A DNA stretch of 64,000 bases from Macrolepiota albuminosa. Taxonomy: Eukaryota; Basidiomycota; Agaricomycetes; Agaricales; Agaricaceae. Location: positions 62,001 through 126,000 of the forward strand of contig JAMWFC010000031.1 of assembly GCA_027475525.1 (NCBI GenBank), read 5' to 3'. Positions 9,733 to 37,775 of this stretch are shown piece by piece. The translations under genes were made by a program, and so were the position numbers. Positions within the stretch are counted from its first letter, which is position 1; each line of letters begins with the position of its first letter. Under the pieces are notes generated by a model that did no database searches, had not been told where the DNA came from, and saw only the letters and a program-made list of their open reading frames with translations.

Positions 9733-11328
9733 ATGTCGCGTACGCCAACGCATTCCCCGACGCCCCCGCAAACCAACGAGGTTGTGCCCCTTATGGCCTG
9801 GGAGGCCCGGGACGCGCGGTATCGAGCCCGCTTGGACCGGGAGCACATGGCGGTGCTTGTGCAACAACGTGAGTGTTTTCCATGATGATCCGTTTGCCGC
9901 AGCTGATTTTCCCCTTCAGAACAACGCTCTTCCCCCGCTCCGGAGGCGGGTCCTAGTCGTATCCCGGAGCCTGCCTCTGGCGGTTCCCTGGAGTCGCATC
10001 CTGTTCGCCCCGCGCCTACCTTCGCGCGGATGACCGTCCGCCCCCCGCGCCCACATCCTCCCCCTCGCCCCAGGCTAACTGCCCCTCGTTTTTGCCGCTC
10101 CAGGATGGCGGTGGGGGCCGTTTCCAAAGTCCTGGTGGACCAGCGTGTTGCGTGGGAGGTTGTCTCCCAGGATTCTTTTGGGGAAGCCCTGGAGAGGCCC
10201 CGGGGCTTGCCCACTCATGCCTGGTGTATGAGCAACGGTCCGGTAAGCAACCTCGCACCTCTGGTTTCGTCGCTGACCTCAGCGCAGTGTCTCCACTGCG
10301 CCCGCCGGGGGGTGTTGTGTCTTTTTGAGGTCCCGGACCCCTCGTCCCGCCGGGACACGTCCGTGTGCGAGGCATGCCGCCTCAATCACGAGCGATGTTC
10401 CGTGTTGGCGCTGTGGAGGGCGTGCTGCGTCTCGAGGAAGCAGGGGTGGCCGCTCGGAGGGATCACTCGGAGGATGGGGGTTGAGGAGAGGGATTGGGTG
10501 GTGGAGCCGGAGGGGGAGCCACAGGCGGTGTCTGCAGGGGGTTCAGGGGGAGGGTCGGGGAGCGGGGGAGCCTCTCGGGTGGGGGGCCGGGGCCGGCCCG
10601 TGGTCCTCATCACGCGCCGGGTGACCCGGGCCGGGGGGAGTTGGGAGGGGCGCGGCGGGTGTCGCCAAGCCCGTCCCCCAGGCCTTCCAAGAGGGTGCGT
10701 TTGCCCTCTGAGACCCCACCCCCAGCTTCCCCGCCCCGTTTGTCCCCGGCGGTATTCTCGCCCCTGTCTGGGAGGCCCTTGGGCGTCAGTGTCAGGGACC
10801 TCCAGGAGCGCTTGGGGAGGGCCGAGCGGGAGCGCGAGGAGGAGGCGGCCCTTTGGAGGGGTTTGGAGGAGGGTCGGGAGGTGGCGCTCTGGGATTTGGA
10901 GGAGGTCAGGGTCGCTCGGGGGGAGGCCAAGGCCGAGTTGGAGTCGTTGAGGGGGAGGGTGGGGCAGGGGGCGGGGTTCCCGGAGGGGCTATTGGAGGCG
11001 GTATGCCAGGATGTGGTAGTCGCCCACATGGCGTCGCTTAGTGAGCGTTTCTTTCCCCGGACTTGGCTCCTTACTGACACCCACAGGCTGGGCCCGGGAG
11101 CATTGTTCGCTCCTGGACGGGGCGGCCGCGGCATTCGTGGCGCTGCAGGAGGGGCAGCACCTGGAAGTGACGACCCCCGGGGTGGAGTGGGGCCTCGACT
11201 TGTTGGGGTGGGTGGTGTCGGCCCACCGGCGGAGGAACGTGCCCGCCCCCGGCTCGTGGTTCGAACGAGTCCTGGACAAGGGCGAGTCTCTCCCGTCCTG
11301 GGAGCAGTTGGCGGAGGAGGTACTGTGA
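9733..11328 (+). CDS. Antisense accessory gene of Gypsy-1: Zn2Cys6-like, coiled-coil protein
   Basis: Runs opposite to gag-pol between the chromodomain and the 3' LTR. Proposed exons are 9733-9868, 9920-10242, 10288-11040 and 11087-11328, with introns of 51, 45 and 46 bp (phases 1, 0, 1), all with consensus donors and CAG acceptors. The third exon begins with CX2CX6C-X15-CX2CX6C (CLHCARRGVLC ... CEACRLNHERC), the spacing of a fungal Zn2Cys6 cluster with a long linker. Then come a Gly-rich tract and a coiled coil (LQERLGRAEREREEEAAL), and the C terminus WVVSAHRRRN...AEEVL. Exon 3 is one base out of frame around 10630-10670, in a G-run, so this copy is damaged or mis-sequenced there. The homologue in Gypsy-2 (37775-36110) has the same exon plan. 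The start is the first ATG, followed by a shared SPTPP stretch. Function unknown; DNA binding is inferred from the cysteine pattern only. Confidence 0.65.
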
Positions 11329-14060
11329 GAGCACGGTCCGGAGGGGATGGGGGAGGGGTTCTGAGGCTGGCCGGGGGAGGGGGGCGAGGGCCGGTAGTTT
11401 CTTTTTTCGCTTTTTTTTTTTGTTGTCCTTTTTTCTCATTGTTTGTTCGTCCTGTCCCGACCCCTACTGTAGAATATGTAAAGTAAAAAATGTATATACT
11501 TGGTTTCCCGGAGTAAAGGGTGGTGTAAGGGGCGAAAGAAGACTGAAAAACAGAAGGCACCTTGCCCAGGTTCCGGGACACCACTATGAAATGGTACTAA
11601 AAGAGAGTAAGATCTAGAAAGGGAAAGTAGAAAGCATACATGGGAGTTGAATCCCTACTGAGCCCAGAGGCGGGGGTTACGCCCACTACTGCCGTCTGTG
11701 GGTCCTGCGCCCGGGAGGGTTGTTTCCCGAGTGCCGTTGTTGGAAGTCCCGGAGTTTGTCAAGGGCGCCTTCGAGGTTTCGGCGCGGTTTCCAAGTGTTG
11801 TCTTCCGGGCTGTATCCCTTCCACCGTACAAGGAAGTGGGGTCGTCCACGAATGTCCCGGGAGTCGAGGATGTCCTTGACCTCGTAGTGATATTCGTCCT
11901 CGACCTTGACTGGGGGAGGGGGTTCGGGCCGTTGTTCGGGGAAGGGATCTGGGGGATGTCGTTCCAGGAGGCGGACGTGGAATACCAGGTGTAGGCCTTT
12001 AAGTCCCGGGGGGAGCTCGATCTTGTAGGCGTGGGATGAGACCTTCTTCAAGATCTTGAACGGGCCGAGGCGCTTGTGATCGAGTTTTGGGGAGGGCCGG
12101 CGGGTGCGGAGGTGTCGTCGATCTAACCATACCTTTGTCCCGGAGGTCCAGTTGGGGGTGTCTTCCCGTTTCTGGTCAGCGTGTTTCATGTAGGCCCGGT
12201 TTGCGGTGTCGATCTCTTCCCAGAGAAACTCGTGAAGGGATTGGAGATCCCGGGCGACCTCGTGGGCGGCATGCGACGGGATGTCCTGGAGCAAGAGTGT
12301 CAGTCGAGGGTGGTATCCCTTGTTGGCAAAGAAAGGGGATACCCCGGTGGCAGAGTGCGGCGTGTTGTTGTAGGTGAACTCGGCCAGGAGGAGCTCGGCG
12401 CGCCAGTCGTCCTGCAAGTAGTTGACGTACAGTCGGAGGTACTGCTCGAGAGACTGGTTGACCCTTTCGGTTTGGCCATCGGTTTCGGGGTGGTAGGCGG
12501 TAGAGAGGTTAGTCTTTACTTCAAGTGCCTTACACAGGGAAGTCCAAAACTTGGACACGAAGAGAGGGCCACGGTCAGAGACGATGTCGTCCGGGAGTCC
12601 ATGTTTGGCGAAAACGTGCTCGAGGAACAGCCAGGCGAAGTCCGGGGCGGTGTCCGTGGTGTGGCAGGGTAGGAAGATGCCCTGTTTGGTTAGCCTACAC
12701 ACGACGACGAGAATGGCATCGAACCCTTCAGATTCTGGGAGTTCGACGATGTGGTCCAGGGATATGGAGGACCAGGGGCGTCGTCCGACTGGCAGGGGTT
12801 TCAGGAGTCTGTATGGTCAGTGTCGGGGGACCTTGGCCCGGAGGCAGGGTTCACATGATCGAATGTAGCGGGTCATGTCCTTCTTCAACCCTGGCCAAAA
12901 GTAAGTCCGGGAGATCAGCTGGAGAGTCTTACGTATCCCAGGGTGTCCCCAGAGCTTGTGATCGTGGTGTTGACAGAGGACGTCGTAGCGGAGTCGGGCG
13001 TGATCCGGGACGTAGATGCGGCCGTCCCGGAGGAGGAGTTTTTTGTCGGGGGACAAGGAGAAGGCGGGGTCCCGGTCGGTTCCGTCGGAAGAGTTTCGGG
13101 GGTCGTGATCGGTGAAGTACTTGTTTCGGGGAGCGCTGCGGATCTGGTTCAGGGTTCCTTCGTCGTTTAAAATCAGTACGGCATTCAGATGTTCGGAAGG
13201 GATCACCACACGATGATTGAACGCATTGCGTTCTGCCTCAAACGACTTCTTGAGATAGACATCCGGTCGACGGGTAAGGGCGTCGGGTTTAGCTCCGAGT
13301 CGTCCTGGGCGGTACTGGATCGTGAAGTCGTATTCCGAGAGCACCTCGGACCATCGGGCCTGCCGTCGACTAAGCTGTTTGGTCGTGGTGAAGTACTGCA
13401 GGTTGTTGTGATCCGAGTAGACCTGAATCCGGTGCCGGGCTCCCTCGAGGTAGGCTCACCATTGCTTGAAGGCTTCGACGATGGCGAGGAGTTCCTTGTC
13501 GTAGATGTCGTAGTTGAGCTCGGCGTCGATCATGGACCGGGTGTAGAAGGCAACTGGCCGGGGCTCCCCTCTGTCAGGTTCCATCTGCGAGAGGATCCCG
13601 GCAATGGCGTAGTCGGAGGCGTCGCATTCCAGGATAATCGGGAGGGTCGGGTCGTAGTGCCGGAGTACGGGGGCGGTCATGAAAGCCTCCTTGAGCAGGT
13701 TAAAGACACTCTGGCACTTACTGTCCCAGTTCCAGGCGATGTCCTTGCGCGTGAGCCGGTTGAGGGGTTTCGTGATACCGGAGTAGTTATCTATGAACCT
13801 CCAGTAGAAGTTAGCGAAACCCAAGAAAGACTGTACTTCCTTGACGTTCCGGGGCTGCGGCCAGTTGATGATGGCCTCAACCTTGTGGGGGTCCATGCGA
13901 ACGCCGTTCGGGGATACGATGACGCCAAGATACTCAACCTCTTCCGTATGGAATGAACACTTCTCGGGCTTGGCGTGGAGGTTGTGCTCCCGGAGGCGTT
14001 CGAGGACTTGCCGGACATGCTTCTGGTGATCCTCCGGCGAGTCGGAATAGATGAGGATGT

Positions 14061-14214
14061 CGTCCAGGTAGACGATCACGAAGACGTCGCTCATGTCGTG
14101 GAAGATGTCGTTCATGAAGTATTGGAACGTGGCGGGGCGTCCAGGTAGACGATCACGAAGACGTCGCTCATGTCGTGGAAGATGTCGTTCATGAAGTATT
14201 GGAACGTGGCGGGG
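14061..14214 (+). repeat. Exact 77-bp tandem duplication no. 4
   Basis: Unit 14061-14137 repeated at 14138-14214, in the RT coding part beside YLDD. Even when collapsed, the G-run at its end is one base shorter than the frame needs. Confidence 0.95.
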
Positions 14215-15305
14215 AATTAGTCATTCCGAAAGGCATCACAAGGTACTCAAACAGACCATACCGCGTGCGGAACGCGGTTTTCCACTCGTGTCCCGGGGCG
14301 ATGCGGACGTTGTTGTAACCGGAGCGGAGGTCGATCTTCGTATAAACCTTGGCACTGCGGAGTCGATCGACCAGATCGCCAATGAGCAGGAGCGGGTAGC
14401 GGTTCTTCTTGGTGATCTTATTGAGTCCCCGGTAGTCGACACAGAGTCAGAGCGAGCCGTCCTTCTTCTTGGCGAATAGAACCGGGGCTCCGGCGGCGGA
14501 GGCGGAGGGTCGGATGAATTCCTTACCGAGCATTTCGTCGAGGTAGTCCTTGAAAGCCCGGAGTTCGACCTCTGACATGTTGTAGACCTTGCCGAAAGGG
14601 GGGGTGGCTCCTTCCTCGAGGTCGATGGTGTGATCATAGGGGCGGTGAGGGGGGATCTCCTTGGCGTCTCCTTCGGAGAATACGTCAGCAAACTCGTGAT
14701 ACTCCGGGGGAACTACTTCTCGGAGGATTTGCTCCTCGGTTTTCTGTTCCAGGAGAATAGCGTCCCCTCGTAGGTGTTCTTCCGGGAGAGAGGGCGAGGT
14801 GTGTAGCTGAAACGTGGGAGTTCCATCCCTCATGAGGCGGGCGAAGGGGGTGGCCCCAATGATCCTAATGTCGAGTGCGCTCGGGTCGATCAGGGTCGTG
14901 GAAGCATCGGCCAGAGCGGGTGTGATGCGTGTCTGAGACCGGCAGGGGTAGTTCGGCCCCTTGTACATGTTCCGAGGAATGTTTGGGGGTCGATCGGGGG
15001 CCTTGCGGTCTCGGACGGGCATGGGTAGTGCAGGCGTGGGGGGCGCGGCGGTCGTCCCGGGGGTGTCGGGCGTCGGGTCGCTTCCTAGGGCCCGGAGGTG
15101 CACGGCGGTCAAGGGGTGGTCTTCAGGCCCCGGGAAGGTCATGGTGAGCGTCCTCCAATCGATGTCGGGGTTTGTGTCGCGCAGCCAAAGTAGTCCCAGC
15201 ACCATCGGGGTCGATTCGTGAAGTCGCGTGACCAGGAAGTCGGAAGTGAACTCGTAGTTGTTGTCCAGGGTCACGCGTCCCGAGTGAGACCTTTGAATGG
15301 GGCCA

Positions 15306-15459
15306 GAGGAGGAGGGGGTGCCGTCGAGGCGTTGCAGGCAGAGGGGCTGGTCGAGGGAGTCGTGGGGGAGGTCGAGGGCGTTGAGGAGGAGGGGGTGCCG
15401 TCGAGGCGTTGCAGGCAGAGGGGCTGGTCGAGGGAGTCGTGGGGGAGGTCGAGGGCGTT
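15306..15459 (+). repeat. Exact 77-bp tandem duplication no. 5
   Basis: Unit 15306-15382 repeated at 15383-15459, just downstream of the second protease motif of Gypsy-1. Confidence 0.95.
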
Positions 15460-15622
15460 GCTGATGAAAACCCCGGTGGCTCCGCTGTCGATAAGGGCCG
15501 ATATCGGTCCCGGGGCACCGTCCAGCCTGGCATTAATGACGAGGGATTGGGACAAACGAGACTGGAGTCCGGGAGGTGGTGGGGGCTCGTCTGGGGGGTC
15601 CTTCGGGGTTGGATTTGAGGAG

Positions 15623-15776
15623 TGGGGGATGTCGAAGGGGAGTTGCTGGTCGTCGGGGGTCGGGTCCCAGGTCAGGCGAAGGGTGAGGTGTCGCCAATCT
15701 GGGGGATGTCGAAGGGGAGTTGCTGGTCGTCGGGGGTCGGGTCCCAGGTCAGGCGAAGGGTGAGGTGTCGCCAATC
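15623..15776 (+). repeat. Exact 77-bp tandem duplication no. 6
   Basis: Unit 15623-15699 repeated at 15700-15776, between the two protease domains. Collapsing it joins them in one frame. Confidence 0.95.
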
Positions 15777-15862
15777 GATGCAGGGGTTGGTGTCTCGGAG
15801 CCACGGGAGCCCTAGGACCAGGGGTGCGGAAGGGTGAAGTTTGGTCACCAACATCCGGAGGG

Positions 15863-16015
15863 TGTGAGTCTGTCCGTTGGCGAAGGTAACGGGCATACGC
15901 ACGAAGTGGGTGATGTCCCCCGCCGTAGAGGCGTCTCCTTGTGAGTCTGTCCGTTGGCGAAGGTAACGGGCATACGCACGAAGTGGGTGATGTCCCCCGC
16001 CGTAGAGGCGTCTCC
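15863..16015 (+). repeat. 77-bp-offset tandem duplication no. 7
   Basis: 15863-15938 recurs at 15940-16015, a 76-bp perfect match at an offset of 77 with one unmatched base (T) between copies. It lies inside the first protease domain. Confidence 0.92.
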
Positions 16016-16588
16016 ATCAAAGAGGCAGAGTCGTACCGGGACCGGGAGTCGCTGGGCGGGTTCCGGGGCGAAGGTAGACCATGCTTCATCGATGAAGTTG
16101 TCGGTGGCGCCACTGTCAACGAGGGTGTTGAGGGGAGCTCCTGAGGGGGTGAGGCGGGTTTTGAGGAGGAGGGAGTGCGAAGAGTGAGAGGGTAGATAAG
16201 CCGTGAGGGTGTCCTGTATGAGTGTTGTAGAGCGAAGATGTGAGACCGGGGCGGAGAAGACATCGGGGTCGATTCCGCGATTTAGGGCGTCTTCCGGGTC
16301 TAAATCGCCGGGTTGTTTTCCGAATACTCGTAGGTGGCGTCCTCCCCTTTGAAGGTCCAGGTGGCACGTCCCATGACCTGCCGTTTGGGGCACTCGGAGA
16401 TGAAATGGTCTTTCTCACCACAGAGTATGCAGACACCTTCTCTTCTCCATTGTTCCTGCACATCCGTCGGGACTTCGATCCAGGGTCGTCCCTTCTTTTC
16501 AAGCCGGTTGGCCCGGAGAGCCTCTTTGTCCTGTTCATTGTCGAAGTCGAAGTCTTCGGGGTCTTCCGGGGGTTTCTCGGGGCTTGGC

Positions 16589-16742
16589 GCGTCGCCCGGG
16601 TCGTGGGCGGCCACGGCGGCGTTGAGTTGGGCCTGGGGGCGGGTGCCGCTGCTGGGGTTAGCATTGCGTCGCCCGGGTCGTGGGCGGCCACGGCGGCGTT
16701 GAGTTGGGCCTGGGGGCGGGTGCCGCTGCTGGGGTTAGCATT
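16589..16742 (+). repeat. Exact 77-bp tandem duplication no. 8
   Basis: Unit 16589-16665 repeated at 16666-16742, in gag between the capsid domain and the zinc knuckle. Confidence 0.95.
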
Positions 16743-17465
16743 GGGCGGGCCGCGACTCACCGGGGGTCGGCCGCCCGAGAATGCAGAGGGACCGGGGTTT
16801 CGACCTTGGGGGTTGGGGGCTTCGCCGGAGGGCCAAGGGGGTCCTCCTCTAGGGTTCCAGGGGGGTCGGGAATTCGAATACTCGCTGCGGTCTTCCTAGT
16901 AGCGCTGGTCAATCTGCATGACGAGGGCCTTGTATCCGTCGTAGGAGGGTTGTTTCGGGGCGAGTCGGAGGACGTCCTTGATGCGTTGTGGCAGGGCGCG
17001 GCGGAGGGCGTACCGCAGGGCGCTATAGTTCCAACCTGTTTTGTAAGCTTCCTTCTCAAAACATACGATAAAGGTGGTGAAACGTTCTTCCGAGCGCATC
17101 TGGAGGTTGAAGAGGTTGTCCTCGGCTTTGGCCACGGTGTCATAGATTCCGAACTTCCCGGAAAACTCGTTGACGAAGGCTTGCCAGCGAGCGAGTGCCG
17201 GGTTGTTGGGGTCGAACTGGATGAGGGCCGTGTAGTGATCGAAGGCGATTCCCTGGAGGTACGATGCGGCAAAGGCCACCCAGGAGCTGTCAACCTGAAA
17301 CGTGAGCGGCTTTGCCTGGAACGTATTAAGACACTGAGTGAGGAAGGTACGCCATTTTCAGGGGTCCCAGCCCGTGAAAGCGTTGGGCTTTTGGATGTCC
17401 AGTCGTCCTTCACGGGCGAGGGCGTCGCGAGCGTCGTCCGGTCCGGCAGTGTTGCGGGGAGGGGG

Positions 17466-17619
17466 GCCAGCATTGTAATAGTAGTAGTAGTGATTACCCC
17501 CCCCTCCTTGAGGAGGAAAAGCACCAAGGGCGGGGCCCCACCGCCAGCATTGTAATAGTAGTAGTAGTGATTACCCCCCCCTCCTTGAGGAGGAAAAGCA
17601 CCAAGGGCGGGGCCCCACC
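17466..17619 (+). repeat. Exact 77-bp tandem duplication no. 9
   Basis: Unit 17466-17542 repeated at 17543-17619, in gag upstream of the capsid domain. The unit includes a GTAGTAGTAG run and a C8 tract. Confidence 0.95.
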
Positions 17620-19200
17620 CGCTTGGAGGGCCTCCTCTGGGCGGCTCACCTGGGGGTCCACGCCCAGGGAGTCCGTTATCCCAAGGGGGTTCGTTCCTGC
17701 CAGGAGGAGGCCCGGGTCTCCACGCAGGGGGGGGCGGAGGTGGGGGCCCTGGGAGTCGTCCTCGAGGTTTGGCTGGGGGTGGCGGAGGTGGTCAGGGAGG
17801 GTTTGGCAGTGTCGGGTCGGGCGGAGGGGGGCCAGGTGCTGAGTCGGGTGCCGGGTTGCGCGGGGGACGTTCAACCCGGGAGGGTCGTGCTTGCATTGGG
17901 GGTCGCGGGGGGTTTTGTAGGTCAAAGTGGAGTGGCGGGTCGTGACGGAAGTTGGGTTCCAGAGGGGCCGGGGCGGACGTGGGGGGCGGTGCTGGTGCCG
18001 GGGCGGGCGCAGGCGCGGGACGTTGTTCGTTGTTGTCGCACGTGAGCTCGTCGATGTAGCATAGCGTGTCGTCTGTACTAGGGGTGTCCACCCAGGCTCT
18101 ACCGGGGTTCGCTGGGGGCGGAGGTCGGGCGTTGTCCATTCGCGGGAGGGGTTCCAGGAGTCTCTGGGGCTGCCCCCAGGTCTTGAAGGTACTAGGAACG
18201 GAATTAGCCCTGCGACGAGTTGACAAGCCTACCGTGCGGGCAGCGGGTTGGTCGAAAAGGCCTCCAGTCAGGTTGAGGGACCGTAATATGGCTGAGGCGT
18301 TCTGCCGTTCTTCCCGTTGTCGTTGCTCCGGAGTGGGGGCCGTGGGGGCTGCCGGAACTGCTGGGGCCGGTTCCGGGGATTCCCGTCAAATGTGAATCGA
18401 GCGACCTGGGTCCGTGGGGTTGTTGAGGGGCCGAGGGGAGGGGGACGCGTGGACTTCGTTGAGCAGTTGCTGTAATTCTTCCCGGAGGATCGTATTGCGC
18501 CTATACTTTACCATGGTTTGCTCCGGGAGTTCTCCTCGCGTGAGGCGATCCCCAAATTCGACCAGGCAGTGAGCCCATTCCTCCGGAGTGCCTTCGAAGT
18601 CGTCGTGTCCGAATTCCACGAGCAGCGTCCTTGTCCGTTGCGCGAAGTTCTCTGGCGAGATCCTGAGGGAGCGGAGTACCTCGTCCCGTTGCCGTTCATA
18701 CTCCTCGAGGCGTCGTCGTCCCATTGGCGAGGGAGGGGTTCGAGCGGGTGGGGCGGCGGCCGGGTAATGACGAGGGGGGTAGTCGGGGTAGGGGGGTCCT
18801 CGGGGTTCTCGGGGTTGGGGGACGGGGCGTTGATAACCGTAGTAGGGGGTGGGTGCAAAGGGGCCCTCGCTGGGGGGAATCGGGCGAGGTCCACTAGGTA
18901 CAGGTGGGGTCTCCGGCAGGCCCCCGGGAATGCTCCGGTACGAGGGGACCTTCACGGGTCGTGCCATGGCTAAGTTGGGCAGAGGGGCCCAGCTGGCTGA
19001 GGGCCCCAGGTCGTAGAGGGACGGGTCGGGGGCCCAGTGGCGGTGGAGATATGGAGGTTCGTACGGGAGAGGTGGGTAGACGGGGCGGGGGGTCTGCGCG
19101 GAGTAGTGGTCGGGTACCGGGCGTCCGTAAGGGTCGGTCTGGTACCCCGTGGGGTAGTAAGTGTGAGTATACGTAGCCATCAAGAACGGTGTAAGGAGGG

Positions 19201-19212
19201 AGTCTTGATATT
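19201..19212 (-). promoter_or_regulatory. Gypsy-1 primer-binding site (self-priming type)
   Basis: Minus strand AATATCAAGACT, one base from the LTR edge. It is the perfect 12-nt complement of AGTCTTGATATT in the LTR (plus-strand 19600-19589), which lies about 28 bp after a TATA-like ACTTATAGCA. The 5' end of the transcript could therefore fold back as primer, as in Tf1. Confidence 0.7.
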
Positions 19213-19213
19213 A

Positions 19214-19963: not shown

Positions 19964-19968
19964 AATGC

Positions 19969-25970: not shown

Positions 25971-26768
25971 TGTCACAACCCGTCACCTCAGCCTGTCACC
26001 CCAGCACACCACACGAACCCCGACGTGCTCCGACTCCTCGCCTGCACCCCGACTCCCTGCCCTCACAGCTCACGTAGTTGCCCACCCAGTCAGGGGACCC
26101 ACCCCGGCGCCTGCACCCTGTACTCCGGGCCCCGTCAATCGCCCGGCATTCCACCCTGCACCATCCAACAGGGCCCGACCAATCCCCCGGCGCCACATCC
26201 GTATCCAGACAATACGCCGCACAGGACTCAACCAGGACAATACAGCGCACAGGACTGGACACGCGAAGCCTAGCCCCGGAACTTACCCAGGCGCCCTGGA
26301 CCTTAACCGCTGAAGGTATATAGCTGGTAGCCAGTAAACCATTATAGTAGTCTTGATATTGCCATAAACTCGTCTCTATACTCTCTTGTCTATTTCGCAC
26401 TTATCTCAATCTATCTGTCTTATCCTCTCAAGTCTCTCGGCCCTCTAAAAGTCTCACTTCAATTCTAACTCAGTCTCCCGGTTCCAATCTCAGTCTCCCG
26501 GTCTTAGTCTCTTTCTCTGATCACCCCTCCTCTCCTCCGCCTAGCAAGGCTCTGCCTACTCCCACCCCGTATTCTGGACTTAGCCCGGGATCCTGCTCTA
26601 CCTCTCCCTACAAACTCCGGCGCTCTGTAGCCACCCCACGCCCCACCCAAAGCCCTGGAACTCATCCTCCATTACCTGGAGACTCTCCGTAGACTTCAAG
26701 TCCGCCTAGTAAGGACCCGCTTGCCCCCGGAGGCCCCCGGAGGCCCCTGTCATCAGCAGAACCTGACA
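25971..26768 (+). repeat. Gypsy-2 5' LTR
   Basis: 798 bp, TGTCACAACCC...GGAACCTGACA. It contains the TATA box and the primer-pairing word described under 26317-26360. Relative to the 3' LTR it has about 20 extra bases, including a short duplicated GTCACC segment near 25985. Confidence 0.93.
26317..26360 (+). promoter_or_regulatory. Gypsy-2 LTR TATA box and predicted transcript start
   Basis: TATATA at 26317-26322. 32 bp downstream is AGTCTTGATATT (26349-26360), the complement of the PBS. The spacing fits a start site at about 26349. Start-site placement is inferred. Confidence 0.6.
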
Positions 26769-26769
26769 T

Positions 26770-26781: not shown

Positions 26782-26958
26782 CCCCCTTACCCTGTTCTCA
26801 ATGTCTACGTACACCTCCGTTGATGACGCCAACTGTAGTTGGGTGCGCTGGACGTATACGCAGTACAACGCTGTCTCCAGTGCCTGGCATACGGGTTTGT
26901 GAGGAGTCCTGGCAGGGTCCCAGTGTGCTTGAGCAGAGGTGATAGGGCGATGCGCTAG

Positions 26959-27112: not shown

Positions 27113-27249
27113 GCGCAGCGTAGCGTGCCCATAGGTGGCACCATAAACAACGAAGACAAGATAGACGAAGCTAGCGCTGAACTTGGTGACAAAGTCAGGC
27201 AATGCTAGCGCAATTTGAACGCTAAGTGTAACTGGGTGCTCAAGAGGTT

Positions 27250-27403
27250 ACGATTCGTTGGTATATACATGGCAAGTAGCTAGTTTTTATACTATGCGCT
27301 ACGGTATTTCCAAAATAAGTCCATTGACGATTCGTTGGTATATACATGGCAAGTAGCTAGTTTTTATACTATGCGCTACGGTATTTCCAAAATAAGTCCA
27401 TTG
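27250..27403 (+). repeat. Exact 77-bp tandem duplication no. 11
   Basis: Unit 27250-27326 repeated at 27327-27403. The match runs 3 bases further by chance. Copy B has it once (near 7590-7665). Confidence 0.95.
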
Positions 27404-27573
27404 ACGGCACTACCAATTAGCGCCTCTCTTCGTGGCTGTAGCTAACGGCCACCTGTCAACAGCGACCTGCAGCACATGGGTGACGGCGACCAACAGCGAC
27501 TCTAAAACTACTTAGAAATGGTACGAGTTTGCTCACTTTTTGATGTAATTTAATTGGCCATGCCATCCCAGGG

Positions 27574-28441: not shown

Positions 28442-31400
28442 CAGGATATGGTTGGGGAATCCTCAACAGACGCCGTGAGCGCTAATTCCGGCGCTAAACA
28501 TTGTACCATCTTTTGATAGATTTAAATGTCGGGTCTGTGTGTATCCTGTCTCGTCGTCATTGATTCCTTTAGACTTCTGATTGAGGTGCCTCGGTGATTG
28601 ACAGCGCCAGTTGCTAACTCCTTTCAGTACTGATCGGGGTTTGGTCAGAGTCACCTCCTGCCGTTGTGCTAGCGCTATGAGTTCTGAGCCTTCTTGGTCT
28701 TCAAAGTAACTGAGTGGAGTGCGCTGAGGGGCTGATACTGGTGATTGAGATGAATGGATAAGTCTTGCCATAGAGCGCCCACGCTAGGGCTGCTCTGTAC
28801 CCAAGGCTGGTCGCTAGAATCTCTAGTGTGTCAAGTGTTGGTCGGCCTATAATGTCCCTTGATGCGCTCAGTCCGAGTAGAAGCCTATCACTGTCTACTA
28901 TCCCGTGGGCTACCAAACCGATGCCTATGGTTGCCCACTATCCGAACAATACAACCACAGCACCTCCCAACCCGTATATCCACCTCCGATCCCCGAAATC
29001 TACCCCGCACTCCGATTCTGAGCCCCCAACCTGAATGGAGCCTACGGCCCCTCGGCCAGCCAGCTCCTGCACCCTCCGGACTGGCAGATGTATGCCAATC
29101 CTCCCGTCAACTCTGGCACCTATAGGATGGTACCCGGGAGACTCCTCAAAACCCTGCGGGGAGCCACTCTACCTCCAGCCAGCAGAGGGCCATTCGCACC
29201 CTGGCTGCAGGTTGCCCAACCCCAACCACCCTCCTCAGATACAGAAACCCTGGAACCGCCCCAGAATTGGCCACGCCCCATGGCGGTCCCGCCGGCCCGC
29301 CCTCTGACCTCTCCCCTGGAACGACAAACGGAGGAGTACCTCCAACAGCGAGACAAAGTGCTGCGCACACTCTGCACCTCCCCCGAGGAGTTCACCCAAT
29401 GCACGTGTGCCCTCTTGGTCACCCTCGGCAACCACGACCTCCAGGGCACGCCGGAAGAATGGGCCAATTGCCTCCTCCGCTTCCACGACCAATTCCTAAA
29501 AGGGACCCTCCCTAATAATACCAAAAGAACGCTGCAAGTGGACCCGACGCTCCAGGACGAACTTCAGAGCCTGATAGATGAAATCCACACCAGCCCCAAC
29601 CCCTGCCGCTTCGAGGACCTCTTGGACCCAGCCTGCTCTTTCCACGTCCAAAGGGACAAACCCCGCTCAGGTACCCAAGAGAACCCCCTGCAACGAGACC
29701 AATGACAGCAGGAGGAGCTCAACGCCACCTCCGCCACCCTACGGTCCCTAAACCTGACTGGGGGCCTCTTCGACCAACCCGCCGCCCACACCGTCGGACT
29801 CTCCACTTGTCCCCGAGCCTACTCAGTGCCCAGCACCTTCAACACGTGGGCACAGGCGGCCAAAGGCAACCTCCGGCCCCCGGAAGGTAAACCCCGCCCT
29901 GAGGGCAACGACACCTCGGACAACACCCTCTCGTACATTGACAAACCTCAGAACCCGGGACTCTCCCCCAACAACCCCGGGAACCCTCCCACTACCACCC
30001 CCGAATTTAACCGCGAACGCCCACCCTACCTGGACCTGTGCCCTCCCTGTGCCCGCAAAGGACCCCCGGGACCACAGAATGACACCCGGCCACAGCCAGC
30101 CCTGCCCCAGCCCCCCTTCGGGCCAGAACCCTCCCAGGCCTTCCCCGACCTGGGACCACCTCGACCCCCTTACAGTCAACCCCCCCAACACCCCAGACAG
30201 GGACCCCACCATCCTCATCCACCCCCACCTCCCCCTCCCCCTCCCCCCCCTAGACGACCTCCTCTCGCTGCCTACCCCCTCAGACCCGCCGGCCCCCCGC
30301 CCCCCCACAGGAGCCCCCCAACCCCCAATGGGCCCCCGGACCCCCACCCGGAGGGCACAGACAGCCCCCCGGAGGAGGCCTGCCAGATGGAGGGCCTCCC
30401 AGAGGATGGGGCGCCGCTGCTGGTGCCTTCCCACCTCAGCAGGGGGAAGAGAACCACTACTACTATTACTACCACGCCGCTCCTCCCCCATGCCTGCAGA
30501 ACCCGCAGGAAGATACCCGGGACGCCCTCGCCTGGGAAGGTAAGCTCGACATACAGAAGCCCGAACCCTTCCACGGACGCAACCCCTGGAAGTGGCGAAC
30601 CTTCCTGATGCAGTGCCTCAACATGTTTCAAGCCAAACCCATCACGTTTCAGCTTGAAGGATCCCGTGTCGCATTCGCTGCCTCGTACCTGCAGGGACTG
30701 GCCTTCAATCACTACATGGCCCTCCTCCGGTTTGACCCCAACAACTCTGTACTGTCCCAGTGGGCGGCCTTCGTGCAGGAATTCTCTGGCCGCTTTGGCA
30801 TCTTCGACACCGTCACGAAAGCCGAGGAAAACCTCTTCAATCTCCGAATGAGGTCTGAAGAGCGCTTTGCCACCTTCATCATTCAATTCGAGAAGGAGGC
30901 CTACAAGACGGGCTGGAACTACAACACCCTCCAGCGAGCACTCCCTCAGCGCATCAAGGACGTCCTCCGCCTTGCACCCAAACAGGCAATATACAACGGC
31001 TACAAGGCACTGGTGACCCAGATCGACCAGAGGTACTGGGAAGATTGCAACGAGTACTCCGGCTCTCGAGGCCAATGGGCCCCTCTGGGAGGGCCCTCTT
31101 GGAAAGCTAACCACTCCGGAGTCTCTAGCCAGGTGCCGCAAGACCCCACCTCGCGTCTGACTCCAGGACGAGGACCCCCTGGACCACCACGACCACCAGC
31201 CACCCTCAATGCAGCTGACGTCAACGACATCCCTGACCCCCTCCCCGGAGACCCCGACGACCCTGACGTTCCAGCTGACAAGCACCCCAAAGACGATGAA
31301 GAGGAAGCTCTCCATGCAAACCGAGTCAGGAACCCCGACTGCCCCTGGATTGATGTTCCCGAAGATGTTCAGGAACAGCAACGCCGGAAGGGCACCTGCC

Positions 31401-31515
31401 TCCTCTGCAGGGAACCTGGACATTTCATTGGCAGCTGTCCAAAACGCCAGACCATGGGTCGGGCCGTCTGGACCATTGATGGAGAAGACTGCGACTTCCA
31501 ATTCACGGAAAATGA

Positions 31516-34500
31516 CCCAGCGATTTAAAAACAGAAGACATTCTGAATTGCAGTCCGGACCCCAACGTCTTCTCTGCCCCGGTTTCCCATCTTCGCGCCA
31601 CGGCTCAACAATCCTCGGACACCCTCCTGACCCACCTCCCTTTGCACTCCCCACAGTCTCTCCTCCTTTGTACTACCCTCGCCTCCTCCCTGGAGCCCGT
31701 CAACACCCTCGTTGACAGCGGCGCCACCAACAACTTCATCGACGAAGCCTGGGTGGCCCTTGCTCCCCAGCCCCCTCAAAGGCTCCCCATCCCCATCCAG
31801 CTCCGGCTCTTTGACGGTAACTCCTCCTCCGCCAGCAACCTCACCTACTTCGTGCAAATGCCCGTGACCTTCGCCTCCAGCCATCATCAGACACTCCGGC
31901 TTCTGGTCACCAAGCTCCACGCTGCCACCCCCCTTGTCCTCAGACTCCCATGGCTGCGTGCCACCAACCCCCAAATCGACTGGAGGACCCTCACGCTTGT
32001 CCTCGACCGAGACGCAACCCAAAAAGCAATCCCCTTCGAAACCCCGCCTTCTCCAACGGGTCCGGAGGACCCCCAGTGCCCCCTGGCCTCCGCTCCCGGA
32101 CCACCCGCTCCTTCGTGATCCATGTCCACCTCAGCGCCGCCACCAAACGTCTCCCCGCCCTCATTGATAGCGGAGCCACCAGAATGTTCATCAGCGACCG
32201 CCTCGCCCTTCTCCACACCCAGCTTGACAAGCCTCTCGGGCTCCGGCTCTTTGATGGGAACGACGCCACTGCTGGACCTATCACAAAGGGACACTCCACT
32301 GCCATAATGCTCGACAATGACCTGACATTCCCGGCCGACTTCCTGGTCACGTGACTCCCCAAAACGACCCCCATCGTCCTAGGCCTCTCTTAGCTCTGAG
32401 AGGTGAACCCCGACATCTGCTGGGAAGATCTCACCATGACCTTCCCTAACCCTGGGGCCTGCCTTGCCACTGCCATCCACCTCTACTCGCAGGCCCCAGA
32501 AGACCCAGGACACCCCAAAATTTCCCGAAGGGAACCCATCAAGTTCCCCCCCAACGTCCCTTGAAATCGTTACAAGGGGCCTCACTACCCTGCCTGGAAC
32601 CACCAACCCCCCAGGCCCAGCTCCAAACCCAACGACCTCCCTGACTCATCCGGAACCCTGGACATCAAGATCATTGGCTGTACCCCCTTCGCGTGAATTC
32701 TCCAGGACGGCACTCCGGCCTACCAGCTCCAGGTATTCCTGACGCTACCTGAGGAACACCTCTGGGCTGAAAGCACCGGCCCCGACGCTAAGACTGAAGA
32801 CCAACTCCTCACTGAAGTTGTTTCCCCCAAGTATCACGAGTTTGCTGACGTCTTCTCTGAAGGTAGCGCCAAGGACCTCCCTCCGCATCAGCCGTACGAC
32901 CACAAGATCGACCTCGAGGATGGCGCGAATCCCCCACTCGGCAAAGTCTACAACATGTCCGAGGTCGAGCTCCGTGCACTCAAGGATTACCTCGATGACA
33001 TGCTGGGAAAGGGGTTTATCCGCGCTTCAATCTTCGCTGCCGGAGCACCAGTCCTCTTCGCTAAAAAGAAAGACGGATTCCTGTGACTATGTGTCAACTA
33101 CCGAGGACTAAACAAGATCACCAAGAAGAACCGATACCCCCTCCCCCTCATCGGAGATCTGGTCGACCACCTCTGCAAGGCCAAGGTCTACTCGAAGATT
33201 GACCTCCGCTCTGGCTATAACAACGTCTGAATAGCCCCGGGACACACGTGAAAAACCGCCTTCCGCACCCGCTATGGCCTCTTCGAGTATCTGGTAATGC
33301 CCTTTGGTATGACTAACTCCCCCACCACTTTCCAGTACTTTATGAACGACATCTTTCATGATATGAATGACGTCTTCGTCATTGTCTACCTGGACAACAT
33401 CCTGATCTATTCGGACTCCCTCGATGAACACTGAATCCATGTCCGACAAGTTCTTGAATGACTCCAAAGTCACAACCTACACGCAAAACCGGAGAAGTGC
33501 TCGTTCCACACTACAGAAGTTGAATACCTTGGCGTCATCGTCACCCCAGACGGAGTTCGCATGGACCCCGCAAAGGTCAAAGCAATCCTCAATTGGCCGC
33601 CTCTGAAGAACGTCAAGGAAGTGCAATCCTTCCTCGGGTTCGCAAACTTCTACCGACACTTCATCGACAACTACTCTGGTATCACCAAGTCCCTCAACTG
33701 GCTAACCTGGAAGGACACCCCCTGGGGGTGGGACAGTAAGTGCCAAAGTGCGTTCACCTTACTCAAGGAAGCTTTCACTTCAGCCCCGATCCTCTGGCAC
33801 TACAACCCCGCCCTCCTGGTTGTCCTGGAGTGCGACGCCTCTGACTACGCCATCGCAGGTATCCTCTCGCAGATGGGACCAGACAACCAGGAACTCTGAC
33901 CCGTGGCTTTTTATACCCGATCAATGATCCCAGCCAAGCTCAATTACGACATCTACGACAAGGAACTCCTTGCAATCGTTGAAGCCTTCAAGCAATGGCA
34001 AGCCTACCTCGAAGAGACCCCCCACCGGATCCAAGTGTACTCAGACCACAACAACCTTCAGTACTTCACGACCACCAAACTTCTCAGCCAAAGACAGGCT
34101 CGGTGGTCTGAAGTTCTATCAGAGTATGACTTTACCATCCACTACTGCCCCAGACGACTCAGAGCCAAGCCCGACGCCCTAACTCGATGTCTGGATGTCT
34201 ATCCCAAGAAGTCCTTCAAGACGGAGCGAAACGCCTTCAACCATCACGTGGTAATCCCCCCCGAACATTTGAATGCAGTACTAATCTTGAACGAGGAAGA
34301 AATCCTGAAGCAGATCTGGGAATCATCCCGAGATGACTATTTCACCTGGCATGAGCCCTGGAGCCCCTCCTCCGATGAACCCCCTCCCGACCTCTCCTTC
34401 ACCCTTTCCCCTGACAGCAAGCTACTCCTCCGCAATGGCCGTATTTACGCCCCGGATCACAAGAACATCCGCCTTGACATCCTCCGACAGCACCACGACT

Positions 34501-35760
34501 ATAAACTCTGGGGACACTCAGGGATACGTAAGATCCTCCAGCTCATCTCACGCACTTACTTTTGGCCAGGGATGAAGAAGGATGTCACCCGATACGTCCA
34601 AGCCTGCAAACCGTGCCTCCAGGCCAAAGTTCCCTGCCACAAGCCCTACGGATTACTCAAGCCCCTGCCCATTGGGAGATGCCCGTGGTCTTCCATCTCC
34701 ATGGACCACATCGTCAAACTCCCCAAGTCGGAGGGCTTTGACGCCGTCCTCGTCATTGTGTGCCAACTCACGAAGCAAGCCATCTTTATCCCCTGTCACA
34801 CCACCAACAACGCCCCAAGTTTCACCCGACTCTTCCTGGAACACGTGTTCTCGAAGCATGGACTCCCAGATGACGTTGTCTCTGACCAGGGCCCCCTCTT
34901 CATTTCCAAGTTCTGGACATCCCTGTGCAAGGCCCTCAGCGTCCGTGTCAACCTCTCCACCGTGTACCACCCGGAAACCGACGGACAAACCGAGCGGGTC
35001 AATCAGACCCTGGAACAGTACCTCCAGATCTACATGAACTACCTCCAAAATGACTGGCGCGCCGAACTCCCCCTCGCCAAGTTCACCTACAACAACACCC
35101 CCCACTCCGCCATGGGAGTATCCCCCTTCTTTGCAAATAAGGGGTACCACCCCCGACTGACCCTGTCCCTCCGGGATATTCCTGCTCATGCCGCCCACAA
35201 AGTCGCCCAGGACCTCGGGGCCCTCCACAAATTCCTCCGGAACAAAATCGACGTCGCCAACCAAGCCTATTCCAAGCACGCCAACCCCCGACTGGAGCCC
35301 TGGTACTCTTGTTTGGCTTGACCAACGCAATCTCCAGACGAGGTGACCATCAGTGAAGCTCGATCATAAGCATTTTGGCCCCTTCAAGATAACCTGAAAG
35401 GTGTCCTCACATGCCTACCGCCTGGACCTCCCTCTGGGATTACGAGGACTCCACCCCGTGTTCCACGTCCAACTCCTTGAAAAGCACAACCCAAAGCCCT
35501 TCCCTGGGCAACGCCCCGACCAACCTCCCCCCTTCGAGGTGGACAACAAGTATCATTACAAAGTTGACCACATCCTCGACTTGTGAGTGATCTGAGGATG
35601 ACTGAACTACCTCGTGCAGTGGGCTGGCTACGGACCAGAGGACAACACCTGGGAGCCCCAGGCAAACCTGAAGAACGCCCCCGGCAAGCTCCGACATTTT
35701 CATGAGGCCCACCCAGACAAGCCCCGATCTCCCGGGGCTGAGGATCCCACAGATGGCTAC
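31516..35760 (+). pseudogene. Gypsy-2 pol (PR-PR-RT-RH-IN-chromodomain)
   Basis: The pol frame (-1 to gag) is open from 31516 just before the gag stop (VFSAPVSHLR shared with Gypsy-1). PR1 is TLVDSGATNNF (31710) with LRLPWLRATNPQIDW. PR2 is ALIDSGATRMF (32163) with VLGLS then a stop, and NPDICW. RT: KVYNMSEVELR (32945), [12 protein letters not shown] after TGA 33084-33086, [10 protein letters not shown] (33390) with the second Asp lost. RNase H: LECDASDYAIAG (33830). Integrase: HHCC finger 34490-34620, [36 protein letters not shown] (34980). Chromodomain remnants run 35540-35700 ([16 protein letters not shown]). Most of the roughly ten in-frame stops are TGA where CGA is expected, so CpG decay is likely. 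A frame change lies at about 31990-32110 between the proteases. Confidence 0.88.
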
Positions 35761-36109
35761 AAGGGCGTAACCCCTGCCTCTGGAAATACCAGGGATTCAA
35801 CTCCCACCAATAAGTTCCTTGTTTCTCTCTCTCTTCTATCTTCCTGCATCACGCGCTTGAGGTCACCAGTATATACAAGCTAAAAAAATACAGTATAGGA
35901 CAAGCGAACAAGAAGAAAAAAATGACTCCGAGACCAAGAAAACTTATACCCCCGACCCTGATGTTCCTGACACCCCCGATGCCCCGCTGGAACCCCCCAT
36001 CGTCAAAGCACCTGACTCCCCTAGGACTCCCGGAATGCTCGCCCCCGACCCTGCCGCCACCACCACCGCCACCCTCTTGTCGTATGAAGGGAGGGGCTCT
36101 CTGGCATCC

Positions 36110-37775
36110 ACTGCTACCTCCACCCAGGTTCCGCCTCCGGTGGGCCGTCAGCAGGCGCCCCAGGTGACTAACGCCCTGAGTCACTTCGCCAGGGGCTGGA
36201 CCGGACACCGAGAATAGCCCCTAGGAGATGGAGGCGTGTGCCAAGGCGCCGCTGTCTAGCAGGAGCCGATGCTCCTGTGCCCAGCCTGGAGCAGTTAGTC
36301 AAGAGCCCAGGGAAAGAGACTACCTACTTACGCATTGCCTTGCCCCGGGTGGCGGCCACGCTCCCTACCAGCCAGCCCCTCCGACAAACCAAACTCGCCT
36401 GCACCCCCTCTACCCTCCCCAACAACTCCCATAGCTCTGCCGCCCTCATCTTCTGCGCCTCAGCCCCCGGCAATCGACTATCCCCTTGCTCCAGTCGAGC
36501 CTGCAAGGCCACGACCTCCTCCTCCAATGCTACTCGAGCCCGGGTCGCCGACTCCCTCTCCACCTCCTGCTTGGCCTGCAGATCCTCCTGTAGCCTCCTC
36601 TCCCGCTGGGCCTCCGAGTATGTCTCCCAAAGCCTCACTGTCAGACGACGCTCCCAGATTTCTGAATCCTCCAGCCAGCGGCGGTACAATGCCATGCTCC
36701 CGACATCAGGCTCGACCTCGGGCTCAGGAACGGCGTCGGGATTGGGTCGGTCCATGTCAGGCAGGGGCACCTCCCCACCGGACCTCGAGAGACCTGCAAC
36801 CAGGGACCCAGGAGACCTTCTCTGGCGACAAGTGGGGGGTTGCTCGTCCTCGTCCAAATGCTCGGGCGAGGCACGTCGCTTGCCTTTGTCCTGATGGGGC
36901 ACCTCCGGCTCTTCGTCCGATGAGTGCACCACGGCCAGACGCTTGGCACGATGCCGACGCACTGGGGCCCCCTCTCCCCCTTGGCCCCCGGACAGCGTGG
37001 TACCTGTCGACGGACCCCTTGCCCTTGTCCTCGTACGAGTCCCTTGGACCCCCCACAGTCGCTCCATCACCCACTCTTCCCCCCAACCCTGCTTCTGCGC
37101 CATGCACCGTGCCCTCCAGGCCAATCCCACCGAACACCGCTCGTGACGCAAACGGCAAGCTGCGCACATCAAGGTGTCTCGATGCGCCCCCACCACCGGC
37201 TCCTCGAACTCGCAGGTCACCCCCCTGCACGCACACATCAAGCACTACGAGAAGTCAGGGGAACTCTGACCAATCCCAGACGACACTCACTGGGCCTGCA
37301 GCCTCGCGCCACCTACGCTCTGGATGCCCATGGAAACGCCCCTGTGCAGCCGCAAATTGCTCTGGTGTCACCTGATCTTGAGGAACGCGCTGCACCTCTG
37401 GGACAGGCCACACCTCCCCTATCTCGAGAAATGGGCGATTGGACTGAGACGACGACCCAGGAGGACGGGAGGGAGACCCCTGCGGTGCCCCAGATGACCC
37501 AGCCAGAGGGATCGAGGGACCGCCCAGGGATGAAGGCCCGGCCAAGGAGAGATGAGGAGCTGGACACGAACTGGAACCCATGGAGCCTGTGACGATTGAA
37601 CAATAAAGTCAGGTAATGACGCCAGATACTCACGGGCCATTTTACTAATCCGCTGACAATCCCGCTGTCGATCATATTCCCCCCAGCGCCAATCATACTC
37701 CTGCCAGGATGACAAGGTGTCATCCTCAGCAGGAGGGGGGGTAGGGGAGCGGAGGGGCATAGAAGGGCATGACAT
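36110..37775 (-). pseudogene. Antisense accessory gene of Gypsy-2: Zn2Cys6-like, coiled-coil protein
   Basis: Minus strand, facing gag-pol tail to tail. Exons are 37775-37634, 37586-37291, 37244-36332 and from 36285 down. Introns are 47, 46 and 46 bp in phases 1, 0 and 1, at the same places as in Gypsy-1; intron 2 in both follows a Gly-Pro and precedes the first Cys. The start MSCPSMPLRSPTPP resembles Gypsy-1. Exon 3 is open over 304 codons: CLMCACRGVTC-X15-CAACRLRHERC, a basic tract with KGKRRASPEHLDEDEQ, then a coiled coil (EAQRERRLQEDLQAKQEVER). Exon 4 gives WAQEHRLLLDSGALAH, then T-A-G at 36221-36223 (CAG expected), then the shared LLTAHRRRN. Apart from that stop the copy looks intact, better preserved than its own element's pol. 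Confidence 0.7.

What the first reader, a model, noticed from the sequence alone, without database searches (positions are those of the whole stretch)
9733..37775. Antisense, intron-containing Zn2Cys6-like gene carried by two different chromoviruses
Seen: Gypsy-1 (9733-11328, plus) and Gypsy-2 (37775-36110, minus) each have, opposite to gag-pol and just inside the 3' LTR, a gene with four exons. The introns are 51/45/46 bp and 47/46/46 bp, in phases 1/0/1 in both. Intron 2 in both follows Gly-Pro and precedes the first of six cysteines in CX2CX6C-X15-CX2CX6C. A coiled coil and the C-terminal AHRRRN are also shared. Conserved splice positions on the strand not used for pol are hard to explain by chance and argue for a working cellular-type gene, perhaps captured from the host and kept by the element. 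Spliced antisense genes near the 3' LTR are rare outside some retroviruses. A role in regulating LTR transcription or targeting is conjecture.
Basis: partly seen in the sequence, partly recalled or inferred. Interest (0 to 1): 0.9.

Follow-up and report, generated by a model that had tools for sequence, protein, structure and literature searches.

The report
Antisense spliced gene in fungal retrotransposons
A family of jumping genes in a fungus carries, on the strand opposite to its own replication genes, an extra gene with three introns that selection has kept working in many copies and that probably makes a DNA-binding control protein, a little like one known from a human leukaemia virus.

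Summary
The gene recurs in one Ty3/chromovirus lineage of this 100-Mb genome (144 and 153 matches in two capped searches). In 22 of 22 loci read it lies tail-to-tail with pol; it starts 111-150 bp inside the 3' LTR in 32 of 33 copies. Its three introns keep GT/AG (94 of 105 donors, 100 of 105 acceptors). It evolves under purifying selection as strong as pol's (omega 0.20 against 0.18, 0.37 against 0.35).
Corrections: both window copies are broken. Copy 1 changes frame in exon 3; copy 2 has an in-frame TAG before AHRRRN. Four other copies are open through all four exons. The coiled coil is not supported by a periodicity test.
The six-cysteine domain matches Pfam Zn_clus below threshold, with its two halves in swapped order.
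[quoted passage not shown] HTLV HBZ is the best-studied analogue. Best reading: a self-encoded nuclear DNA-binding regulator. Transcription, splicing and binding are inferred, not shown.

The parts
9733..9868 (+). copy 1 (Gypsy-1) exon 1
   Evidence: ATG, 136 nt, donor GTGAGT, phase 1; same exon matched in 13 of 13 other E-family loci
9920..10242 (+). copy 1 exon 2, ends in ...SNGP
   Evidence: intron 2 donor GTAAGC; 45-bp intron 2 in 14 of 14 E-family copies
10288..11040 (+). copy 1 exon 3: six-cysteine domain (10288-10398) and charged helical region; frame break between the two parts
   Evidence: several other copies of the family have both parts in one frame
11087..11328 (+). copy 1 exon 4, with AHRRRN, stop at 11326-11328
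37634..37775 (-). copy 2 (Gypsy-2) exon 1
   Evidence: 142 nt, phase 1
37291..37586 (-). copy 2 exon 2, ends in ...EAAGP
36332..37244 (-). copy 2 exon 3, open throughout (304 aa); six-cysteine domain 37244-37134
36221..36285 (-). copy 2 exon 4 as far as the in-frame TAG; recognisable sequence with AHRRRN continues beyond the stop to about 36110
   Evidence: exon 4 of some other copies runs through this point
9605..9732 (+). copy 1 leader between the end of the 3' LTR/PPT and the ATG: presumed promoter and 5' UTR of the antisense gene; A/T-rich block about 30 bp before ATG (seen in families C, D, E, not A and B)
   Evidence: alignment of 33 copies; LTR-to-start distance 111-150 bp in 32 of 33 copies with a recognised LTR end
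37776..37919 (-). copy 2 leader, same arrangement
8701..9604 (-). 3' LTR of Gypsy-1 (holds exact 77-nt duplications that look like assembly artefacts)
   Evidence: BLAST of the two LTRs, 95.2-95.7% identical over the two main pieces
37920..38696 (+). 3' LTR of Gypsy-2 (start read from TGTCACGACC; the BLAST match to the 5' LTR 25996-26769 begins at 37932)
   Evidence: 90.7% identical to the 5' LTR
11689..12816 (-). C-terminal pol of Gypsy-1: integrase core, Tf2-1-like SH3, chromodomain
   Evidence: Pfam PF24626 and PF00385 above cut-off, PF00665 below it
33900..35318 (+). pol of Gypsy-2: RNase H, integrase H2C2 and core
   Evidence: Pfam PF17917, PF17921, PF00665

Best explanation
The feature is an accessory gene of one Ty3/chromovirus lineage. 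It sits antisense between pol and the 3' LTR, presumably with its own promoter just inside the 3' LTR, has three short introns and is convergent with pol. It encodes a protein of roughly 500-575 aa: a conserved N-terminal block, a six-cysteine domain that looks like a fungal Zn2Cys6 binuclear cluster with its two halves in swapped order, basic DKGKRRA-type stretches (NLS-like by my reading), a long charged helical region and a conserved C-terminal block. Shown: position, exon plan, protein-level purifying selection, and presence beside most pol copies that could be resolved. Inferred: it is transcribed and spliced (from conserved splice sites); introns survive transposition because the genomic RNA carries their complement, which cannot be spliced; the protein enters the nucleus and binds DNA. 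Conjecture, but the likeliest role: it acts on the element's own LTR/leader region as a regulator of element expression, in the manner of HBZ/APH proteins of deltaretroviruses. My confidence: real selected coding gene 0.95, spliced 0.9, DNA-binding 0.6, regulator of its own element 0.4.
For: Exon plan: all four exons matched in 19 of 20 10-kb loci (L021 lacks exon 1 and most of exon 2; L015 matches exon 1 only in part), in L007, and in 13 of 13 E-family loci other than copy 1's own. Splice sites: 94 of 105 donors and 100 of 105 acceptors in 35 copies; the 11 lost donors all read AT; introns less identical than exons in all four groups. Selection: exon 3 omega lowest of the three forward frames in 64 of 66 within-family pairs, shifted frames 0.49-2.83, median 1.02; pooled omega of exons 1+2, 3 and 4 below 0.45 in each set tested; pol of the same families is alike. 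Stops: 11 in the gene frame against 53-99 in the other frames over 36 copies; 28 of 36 copies open in the gene frame, 0-9 of 36 in the others. Position: pol on the opposite strand in 22 of 22 loci; of 109 pol copies 77 have the gene, 1 has none, 31 unresolved. Co-inheritance: gene and pol distances correlate, Mantel r 0.64, 0 of 2000 permutations. Introns retained: 24 of 24 full-length matches to a spliced junction span 35-46 bp more than the query, in a search that scored 40 of 453 candidates. Domain: C1, C4, C11 and C30 invariant, C27 and C37 nearly so, in 17 copies of five families, plus invariant W43, R44, C47; 15 of 17 hit Zn_clus below threshold, in swapped halves; the only PDB matches of the profile up to E 10 are HAP1/CYP1, a Zn2Cys6 protein (recalled), at E 4.1-6.4.
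Against: No RNA evidence could be had. Two of 66 pairs (L018-L022, L039-L042) do not have the gene frame lowest of the three forward frames, and a third (L024-L027) is undercut by an antisense frame. Zn_clus scores (best 17.5 bits) stay below the cut-off of 21; structure predictions are poor (mean pLDDT 49.7 and 52.6). Heptad periodicity is not significant. No binding site is shown: CGGGGTG near the LTR end occurs in 26 of 33 copies against 4.6 in shuffles, but copies are not independent, the three family D copies printed lack it, and no 8-mer is shared by all family representatives. A related family with 20 listed frames of 1386 aa has, in the one copy looked at, its LTR end 342 bp from the integrase SH3 domain and no such gene, so the gene is not needed for transposition in general. 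One pol copy has no gene in the 1.4 kb examined (L050). The PDB profile match aligns the first motif to the first half of HAP1, against the half-swap. Half-matrix p values against shuffles are only 0.01-0.16 and 0.07-0.13.
Confidence: 0.55

Rival explanations
1. Anti-silencing factor, in the manner of Arabidopsis VANC proteins: the protein binds noncoding repeats of its own family and removes or blocks DNA methylation so that the element can be expressed.
For: Copies show CpG-type decay: in 5 of 6 pairs 42-50% of the differences are transitions at CpG, where CpG bases make up 21-24% of the sequence; the 11 lost donors all read AT. The genome holds DNA-methylase matches (4 rows), so the element may face methylation. 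The gene protein diverges faster than pol between families, as expected of an arms race. VANC binds noncoding regions that form tandem repeats (PMC10398659, abstract); fungal DNA transposons carry TET/JBP, probably for the same purpose (PMC12730594, abstract).
Against: In the sixth pair (L024-L025) CpG transitions are 19 of 74, no excess. No homology to VANC was tested; no shared LTR 8-mer found; tandem-repeat targets were not searched for apart from the 77-nt artefact.
Confidence: 0.2
2. Replication accessory protein: it helps nuclear entry of the pre-integration complex, integration targeting, or RNA packaging rather than transcription.
For: Basic stretches and a Cys-rich domain; suggested for plant antisense ORFs (PMC7264820 section 7). 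The C-terminal block is well conserved and unexplained by a simple DNA-binding regulator.
Against: An antisense mRNA made apart from gag-pol is an odd way to supply a structural or packaging factor (inference); the chromodomain in pol already offers targeting.
Confidence: 0.2
3. The antisense transcript itself (dsRNA or long RNA), not a protein, is what matters.
For: Convergent arrangement with pol; proposed for some plant elements (PMC7264820 passages).
Against: Selection acts on amino acids: low omega and, in most sets, an excess of changes at codon position 3 also outside CpG contexts, few stops in frame, introns less conserved than exons.
Confidence: 0.04
4. Chance or artefact: shadow ORF of a GC-rich strand, or an assembly error.
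For: GC-rich region with long ORFs in many frames; the assembly has exact 77-nt tandem duplications.
Against: The gene lies outside pol; exon plan, selection and splice sites recur across families whose gene proteins differ by 28-63%.
Confidence: 0.01

Closest known systems
aORF-3R genes of plant Ty3/Gypsy elements (maize Grande gene23, rice RIRE2, Silene Retand; TRP28 domain in 97% of Retand clusters)
   Same: Antisense, between pol and 3' LTR, present in most copies, conserved like other element genes, TRP28 predicted DNA-binding (PMC7264820 passages and two sections, PMC11963269 passages)
   Different: Different domain (no PF04195 among Pfam matches of exon 3); Retand is a non-chromovirus lineage (abstract start); the word intron does not occur in the Retand paper's main text, while this gene has three introns; fungal host
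brtn, antisense gene of Boty elements of Botrytis cinerea
   Same: Fungal LTR retrotransposon, extra antisense gene (cited in PMC7264820, and PMC8365987, passages; the original paper was not seen)
HBZ of HTLV-1 and APH-2/3/4
   Same: Antisense gene driven from the 3' LTR, with spliced transcripts; HBZ is a nuclear bZIP factor that lowers 5' LTR expression (PMC10186651, passages)
   Different: Retrovirus; bZIP, not zinc cluster; no homology suggested; expression not shown here
Fungal Zn2Cys6 (GAL4-type) transcription factors, Pfam Zn_clus PF00172
   Same: Six cysteines in CX2CX6C x2, basic residues inside the motifs, sub-threshold Zn_clus matches in 15 of 17
   Different: Halves in swapped order, 15-residue loop, below the curated cut-off, extra invariant W-R-x2-C

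Membership tests
Antisense additional ORF between pol and 3' LTR (aORF-3R) | Antisense to gag-pol, between pol and 3' LTR | tested here: met
   22 of 22 loci read; gene neighbours of pol copies found in the capped lists all on the opposite strand
Antisense additional ORF between pol and 3' LTR (aORF-3R) | Present in most copies, conserved like other element proteins | tested here: met
   77 of 109 pol copies shown with it, 31 unresolved, 1 without; omega like pol's in families A and C
Antisense additional ORF between pol and 3' LTR (aORF-3R) | Transcribed from its own or an LTR antisense promoter | not testable with these tools
   no RNA data
Retand TRP28 (PF04195) | TRP28 domain | tested here: not met
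   no PF04195 among Pfam matches up to E 1 of exon 3, nor up to E 10 of its first 75 residues; exons 1, 2 and 4 not scanned
Zn2Cys6 fungal transcription factor (Zn_clus) | Two CX2CX6C half-sites, six cysteines | tested here: met
   four of the six Cys invariant and two nearly invariant in 17 copies
Zn2Cys6 fungal transcription factor (Zn_clus) | Score above Pfam's gathering cut-off (21 bits) | tested here: not met
   best 17.5 bits, E 0.0047
Zn2Cys6 fungal transcription factor (Zn_clus) | Basic recognition half first, second half after it | tested here: not met
   best stretch: second motif on profile 2-15 in 8 of 10 proteins, first motif on profile 20-36 in the other 2; half-matrices from host domains agree for 6 of 7 first motifs and 7 of 7 second motifs. 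The PDB profile match goes the other way at E 4-6
Zn2Cys6 fungal transcription factor (Zn_clus) | Coiled-coil dimerisation element | tested here: inconclusive
   helical charged stretch but no significant heptad signal in three copies
Chromovirus (Ty3 lineage with chromodomain integrase) | Chromodomain at the C-terminus of integrase | tested here: met
   PF00385 in Gypsy-1; Gypsy-2 and 20 loci match that protein by tblastn, several through its C-terminal part; the chromodomain of Gypsy-2 itself was not scanned with Pfam
HBZ-type bZIP antisense factor | bZIP domain | tested here: not met
   no bZIP among Pfam matches up to E 1 of exon 3; exons 1, 2 and 4 not scanned

The most novel reading that the evidence does not exclude
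A fungal LTR retrotransposon lineage has evolved its own HBZ-like control system: a multi-intron antisense gene, its introns shielded from loss because the genomic RNA carries them in the unspliceable orientation, encodes a DNA-binding protein whose Zn2Cys6 cluster is circularly permuted, and this protein recognises the element's own LTR end to set its expression or to lift silencing, with each element family evolving its own protein-target pair.
Probability: 0.3. Interest if true: 0.85.

Novelty: new variant of a known kind. Interest (0 to 1): 0.62.

Why it matters
Antisense genes next to the 3' LTR are known from plants, one ascomycete element and deltaretroviruses, and the function of the plant ones is stated to be unknown (PMC7264820 section 5). 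Here is a case with several families in one genome, a clear selection signal, a testable zinc-cluster domain and introns that mark true antisense transcripts: reads across a junction can only come from the antisense gene. It makes 'what do antisense retroelement genes do?' directly testable, and the half-swapped zinc cluster, if real, would be a new arrangement of a major fungal DNA-binding fold (one paper search for it found none in the held library).

Tried and rejected
Structure prediction of the cysteine domain: single sequence and three sequences gave mean pLDDT 49.7 and 52.6, so no fold search was run. Relatives in other species: three protein searches returned only P0001-P0004, of source lgn. 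By eye P0001, P0002 and P0003 equal translations of L016, L017 and L015; P0004 is 100% in the own genome. So the spread outside this species is unknown. Processed (intronless) copies as indirect proof of splicing: none among 24 full-length junction matches of a capped search. Conserved LTR 8- or 9-mers: none common to all family representatives. Host origin: no close host relative seen. Literature on fungal or basidiomycete cases and on a permuted Zn2Cys6: listings only, empty; led to the papers cited. A permuted search string of the domain was considered and not made; half-matrices were used instead.
Full report
What was checked. The two genes were read and modelled. Two faults were missed: copy 1 changes frame inside exon 3, and copy 2 has an in-frame TAG in exon 4 before AHRRRN. 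Neither copy can make the whole protein as the sequence stands.

The family. The window is G000:C79:62001-126000 of a 100.1-Mb, 129-contig genome. Exon 3 of copy 2 gives 144 matches (some genes counted in pieces), the Zn part of copy 1 gives 153 matches from 932 first-look candidates of which 150 were scored; both searches are capped and some places look like haplotype duplicates. I read 20 loci of 10 kb (L009-L028) and 14 loci of about 3.3 kb (L029-L042, of which L029 is copy 1 itself), and L007. They fall by gene sequence into families A, B, C (with copy 2), D and E (with copy 1). A sixth family F, seen in one stretch (L067), also has an intron between Gly-Pro and the first Cys by eye; its context was not established. 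L009 and L016 hold a second, more distant copy of the gene.

Exon plan. All four exons were matched in 19 of the 20 10-kb loci (L021 lacks exon 1 and most of exon 2), in L007, and in 13 of 13 other E loci. In 35 copies aligned by family (L021 left out), donors are GT in 94 of 105 cases and acceptors AG in 100 of 105. All 11 lost donors read AT. Family D carries most of the losses (9 of 15 donors, 11 of 15 acceptors kept); part of D's intron 1 is probably misaligned. Intron interiors are less identical than exons in all four groups (0.815/0.884, 0.830/0.870, 0.428/0.639, 0.787/0.857). Four of the five copies spliced (L016, L025, L038, L039) read through all four exons without a stop (529-577 aa; the C-terminus of L038 runs on past the usual end); L023 does not.

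Selection. Nei-Gojobori omega within families for exon 3 is 0.11-0.57 (A), 0.37-0.68 (B), 0.30-0.63 (C), 0.13-0.29 (D) and 0.19-0.75 (E). The gene frame is the lowest of the three forward frames in 64 of 66 pairs and of all six in 63 of 66; the shifted forward frames run from 0.49 to 2.83, median 1.02. The exceptions, L018-L022, L039-L042 and L024-L027, are among the closest pairs; the antisense frame that shares the third position is intermediate. Pooled values: exons 1+2 0.30 (A) and 0.43 (E); exon 3 0.20 (A), 0.37 (C), 0.33 (E); exon 4 0.17 (A) and 0.23 (E). Pol (RNase H to H2C2 piece): 0.18 in the same five A copies and 0.35 in four of the six C copies. Outside CpG, TpG and CpA contexts differences concentrate at codon position 3 in most sets; in E exon 4 positions 1 and 3 have equal counts. 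Stops per frame over 36 copies x 119 codons: 11 in the gene frame, 53-99 in the others; 28 of 36 copies have none in the gene frame, 0-9 of 36 in the others.

Position and inheritance. In 22 of 22 loci pol lies on the other strand, with the integrase/chromodomain end towards the 3' end of the gene; L015 holds another pol piece in the other direction, upstream of the gene. Of 109 copies of pol C-terminus, 55 have a listed gene neighbour, 6 more, 10 more; of 8 fetched stretches where the first list showed none, 7 hold the gene (one of them already among the 10) and one, L050, does not in its 1.4 kb. That makes 77 with, 1 without, 31 unresolved. The LTR end TGACA followed by the PPT complement lies 111-150 bp before the start of exon 1 in 32 of 33 copies where it was recognised, 218 bp in one, and was not recognised in two. 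Gene and pol distances correlate (Mantel r 0.64, 0 of 2000). Mean gene protein distances within and between families are 16-63%, those of pol 6-28% over the compared stretch. A related family shows up with 48 integrase copies of equal score over the 62-residue SH3 domain and 20 listed frames of 1386 aa. In the one copy looked at, the LTR end lies 342 bp from the SH3 match and there is no gene. So the gene belongs to one lineage, gained there or lost in the other.

The domain. Across 17 copies C1, C4, C11, C30, A5, F13, E14, P16, D23, T24, E35, V39, W43, R44, C47, Q52 and W54 are invariant and C27 and C37 nearly so. Pfam has no hit above threshold, but with relaxed limits 15 of 17 members hit Zn_clus, best E 0.0047, 17.5 bits against a cut-off of 21. 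In 8 of 10 proteins the best stretch lays the second cysteine motif on the first half of the profile; in the other 2 it lays the first motif on the second half. Matrices from 15 host Zn_clus loci (9 first and 13 second halves usable) classify host halves correctly in 22 of 22 leave-one-out cases, call the first motif 'second half' in 6 of 7 and the second motif 'first half' in 7 of 7; against shuffles the p values are 0.01-0.16 and 0.07-0.13, so this is a lean, not proof. The PDB profile search hits only HAP1/CYP1 (E 4.1-6.4), in the unswapped register. Structure prediction failed to give a confident model.

How it may work. Zn2Cys6 halves are related by a pseudo-twofold axis (recalled), so a swapped order could still form the cluster. 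An intron-bearing gene in a retroelement must lie antisense to keep its introns through an RNA stage (established logic, as used in transposition reporters; recalled). In keeping with this, 24 of 24 full-length matches to a spliced junction keep the intron (capped). The protein is thus expected from a separate antisense mRNA starting near the 3' LTR. The nearest working model is HBZ/APH of HTLV (PMC10186651, passages); plant aORF-3R proteins are thought regulatory as well (PMC7264820, passages and sections 5 and 7; PMC11963269, passages). VANC-type anti-silencing (PMC10398659, abstract) is a serious rival, because copies show CpG decay in 5 of 6 pairs examined and the genome holds DNA-methylase matches. 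A CGGGGTG motif close to the LTR end in 26 of 33 copies (shuffled mean 4.6) is only a candidate site: copies are related, and the three family D copies printed lack it.

Limits. No RNA, no binding data, no named organism. That the host is a fungus, probably a basidiomycete, is my inference from its Zn_clus genes and short introns. Relatives in other species could not be found with the database at hand. The assembly contains exact 77-nt tandem duplications (14 in the window, 31 in 33 loci, no other offset from 40 to 200 nt) that look like artefacts and break frames falsely; the frame break of copy 1 is not of that kind.

Verdict. As a kind it is a new variant of the antisense additional genes already known next to 3' LTRs. 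Its introns and the swapped zinc cluster are what is new, as far as the searches named above can tell.

Noticed in passing
window 3459, 8787, 9461, 14061, 15306, 15623, 15863, 16589, 17466, 26959, 27250, 27954, 41178, 62298; also 31 places in 33 related loci: Exact tandem duplications at an offset of 77 nt (runs of 76-80 nt in the window) and at no other offset from 40 to 200 nt: very likely an assembly artefact of k-mer size 77. They fall inside Gypsy-1 pol, and exon 3 of L030, L035 and L037 is longer by 77 nt with a broken frame.
   Followed up: yes
G000 contigs C81, C114, C59, C126, C27, C92, C39: Matches repeat within one contig at constant offsets (for example C81 +556,397 and C114 +146,109; place lists): probably both haplotypes joined end to end, or large duplications.
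   Followed up: no
G000:C79:461900-463900 (L066) and the copies with a 1386-aa frame: A related, apparently young Tf2-1-type family with 48 equal-scoring SH3 integrase copies; the one read lacks the antisense gene.
   Followed up: partly
window 9619-9638 (+) and 37905-37886 (-): A block like GCGCCGAGACCCTCCGAGGC directly after the PPT is alike in most copies of all families although much of the rest of the leader differs between E and the others (L015, L025 and L032 depart); function unknown.
   Followed up: partly
window 38680-39168 (-): Piece of a pol polyprotein with a Pol_BBD domain, Copia-type by recall, next to the Gypsy-2 3' LTR.
   Followed up: no
window 51301-52725 (-) and 46358-46825 (+): Host-type oxidoreductases: an FMO-like protein and a Pyr_redox_2 protein piece.
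   Followed up: no
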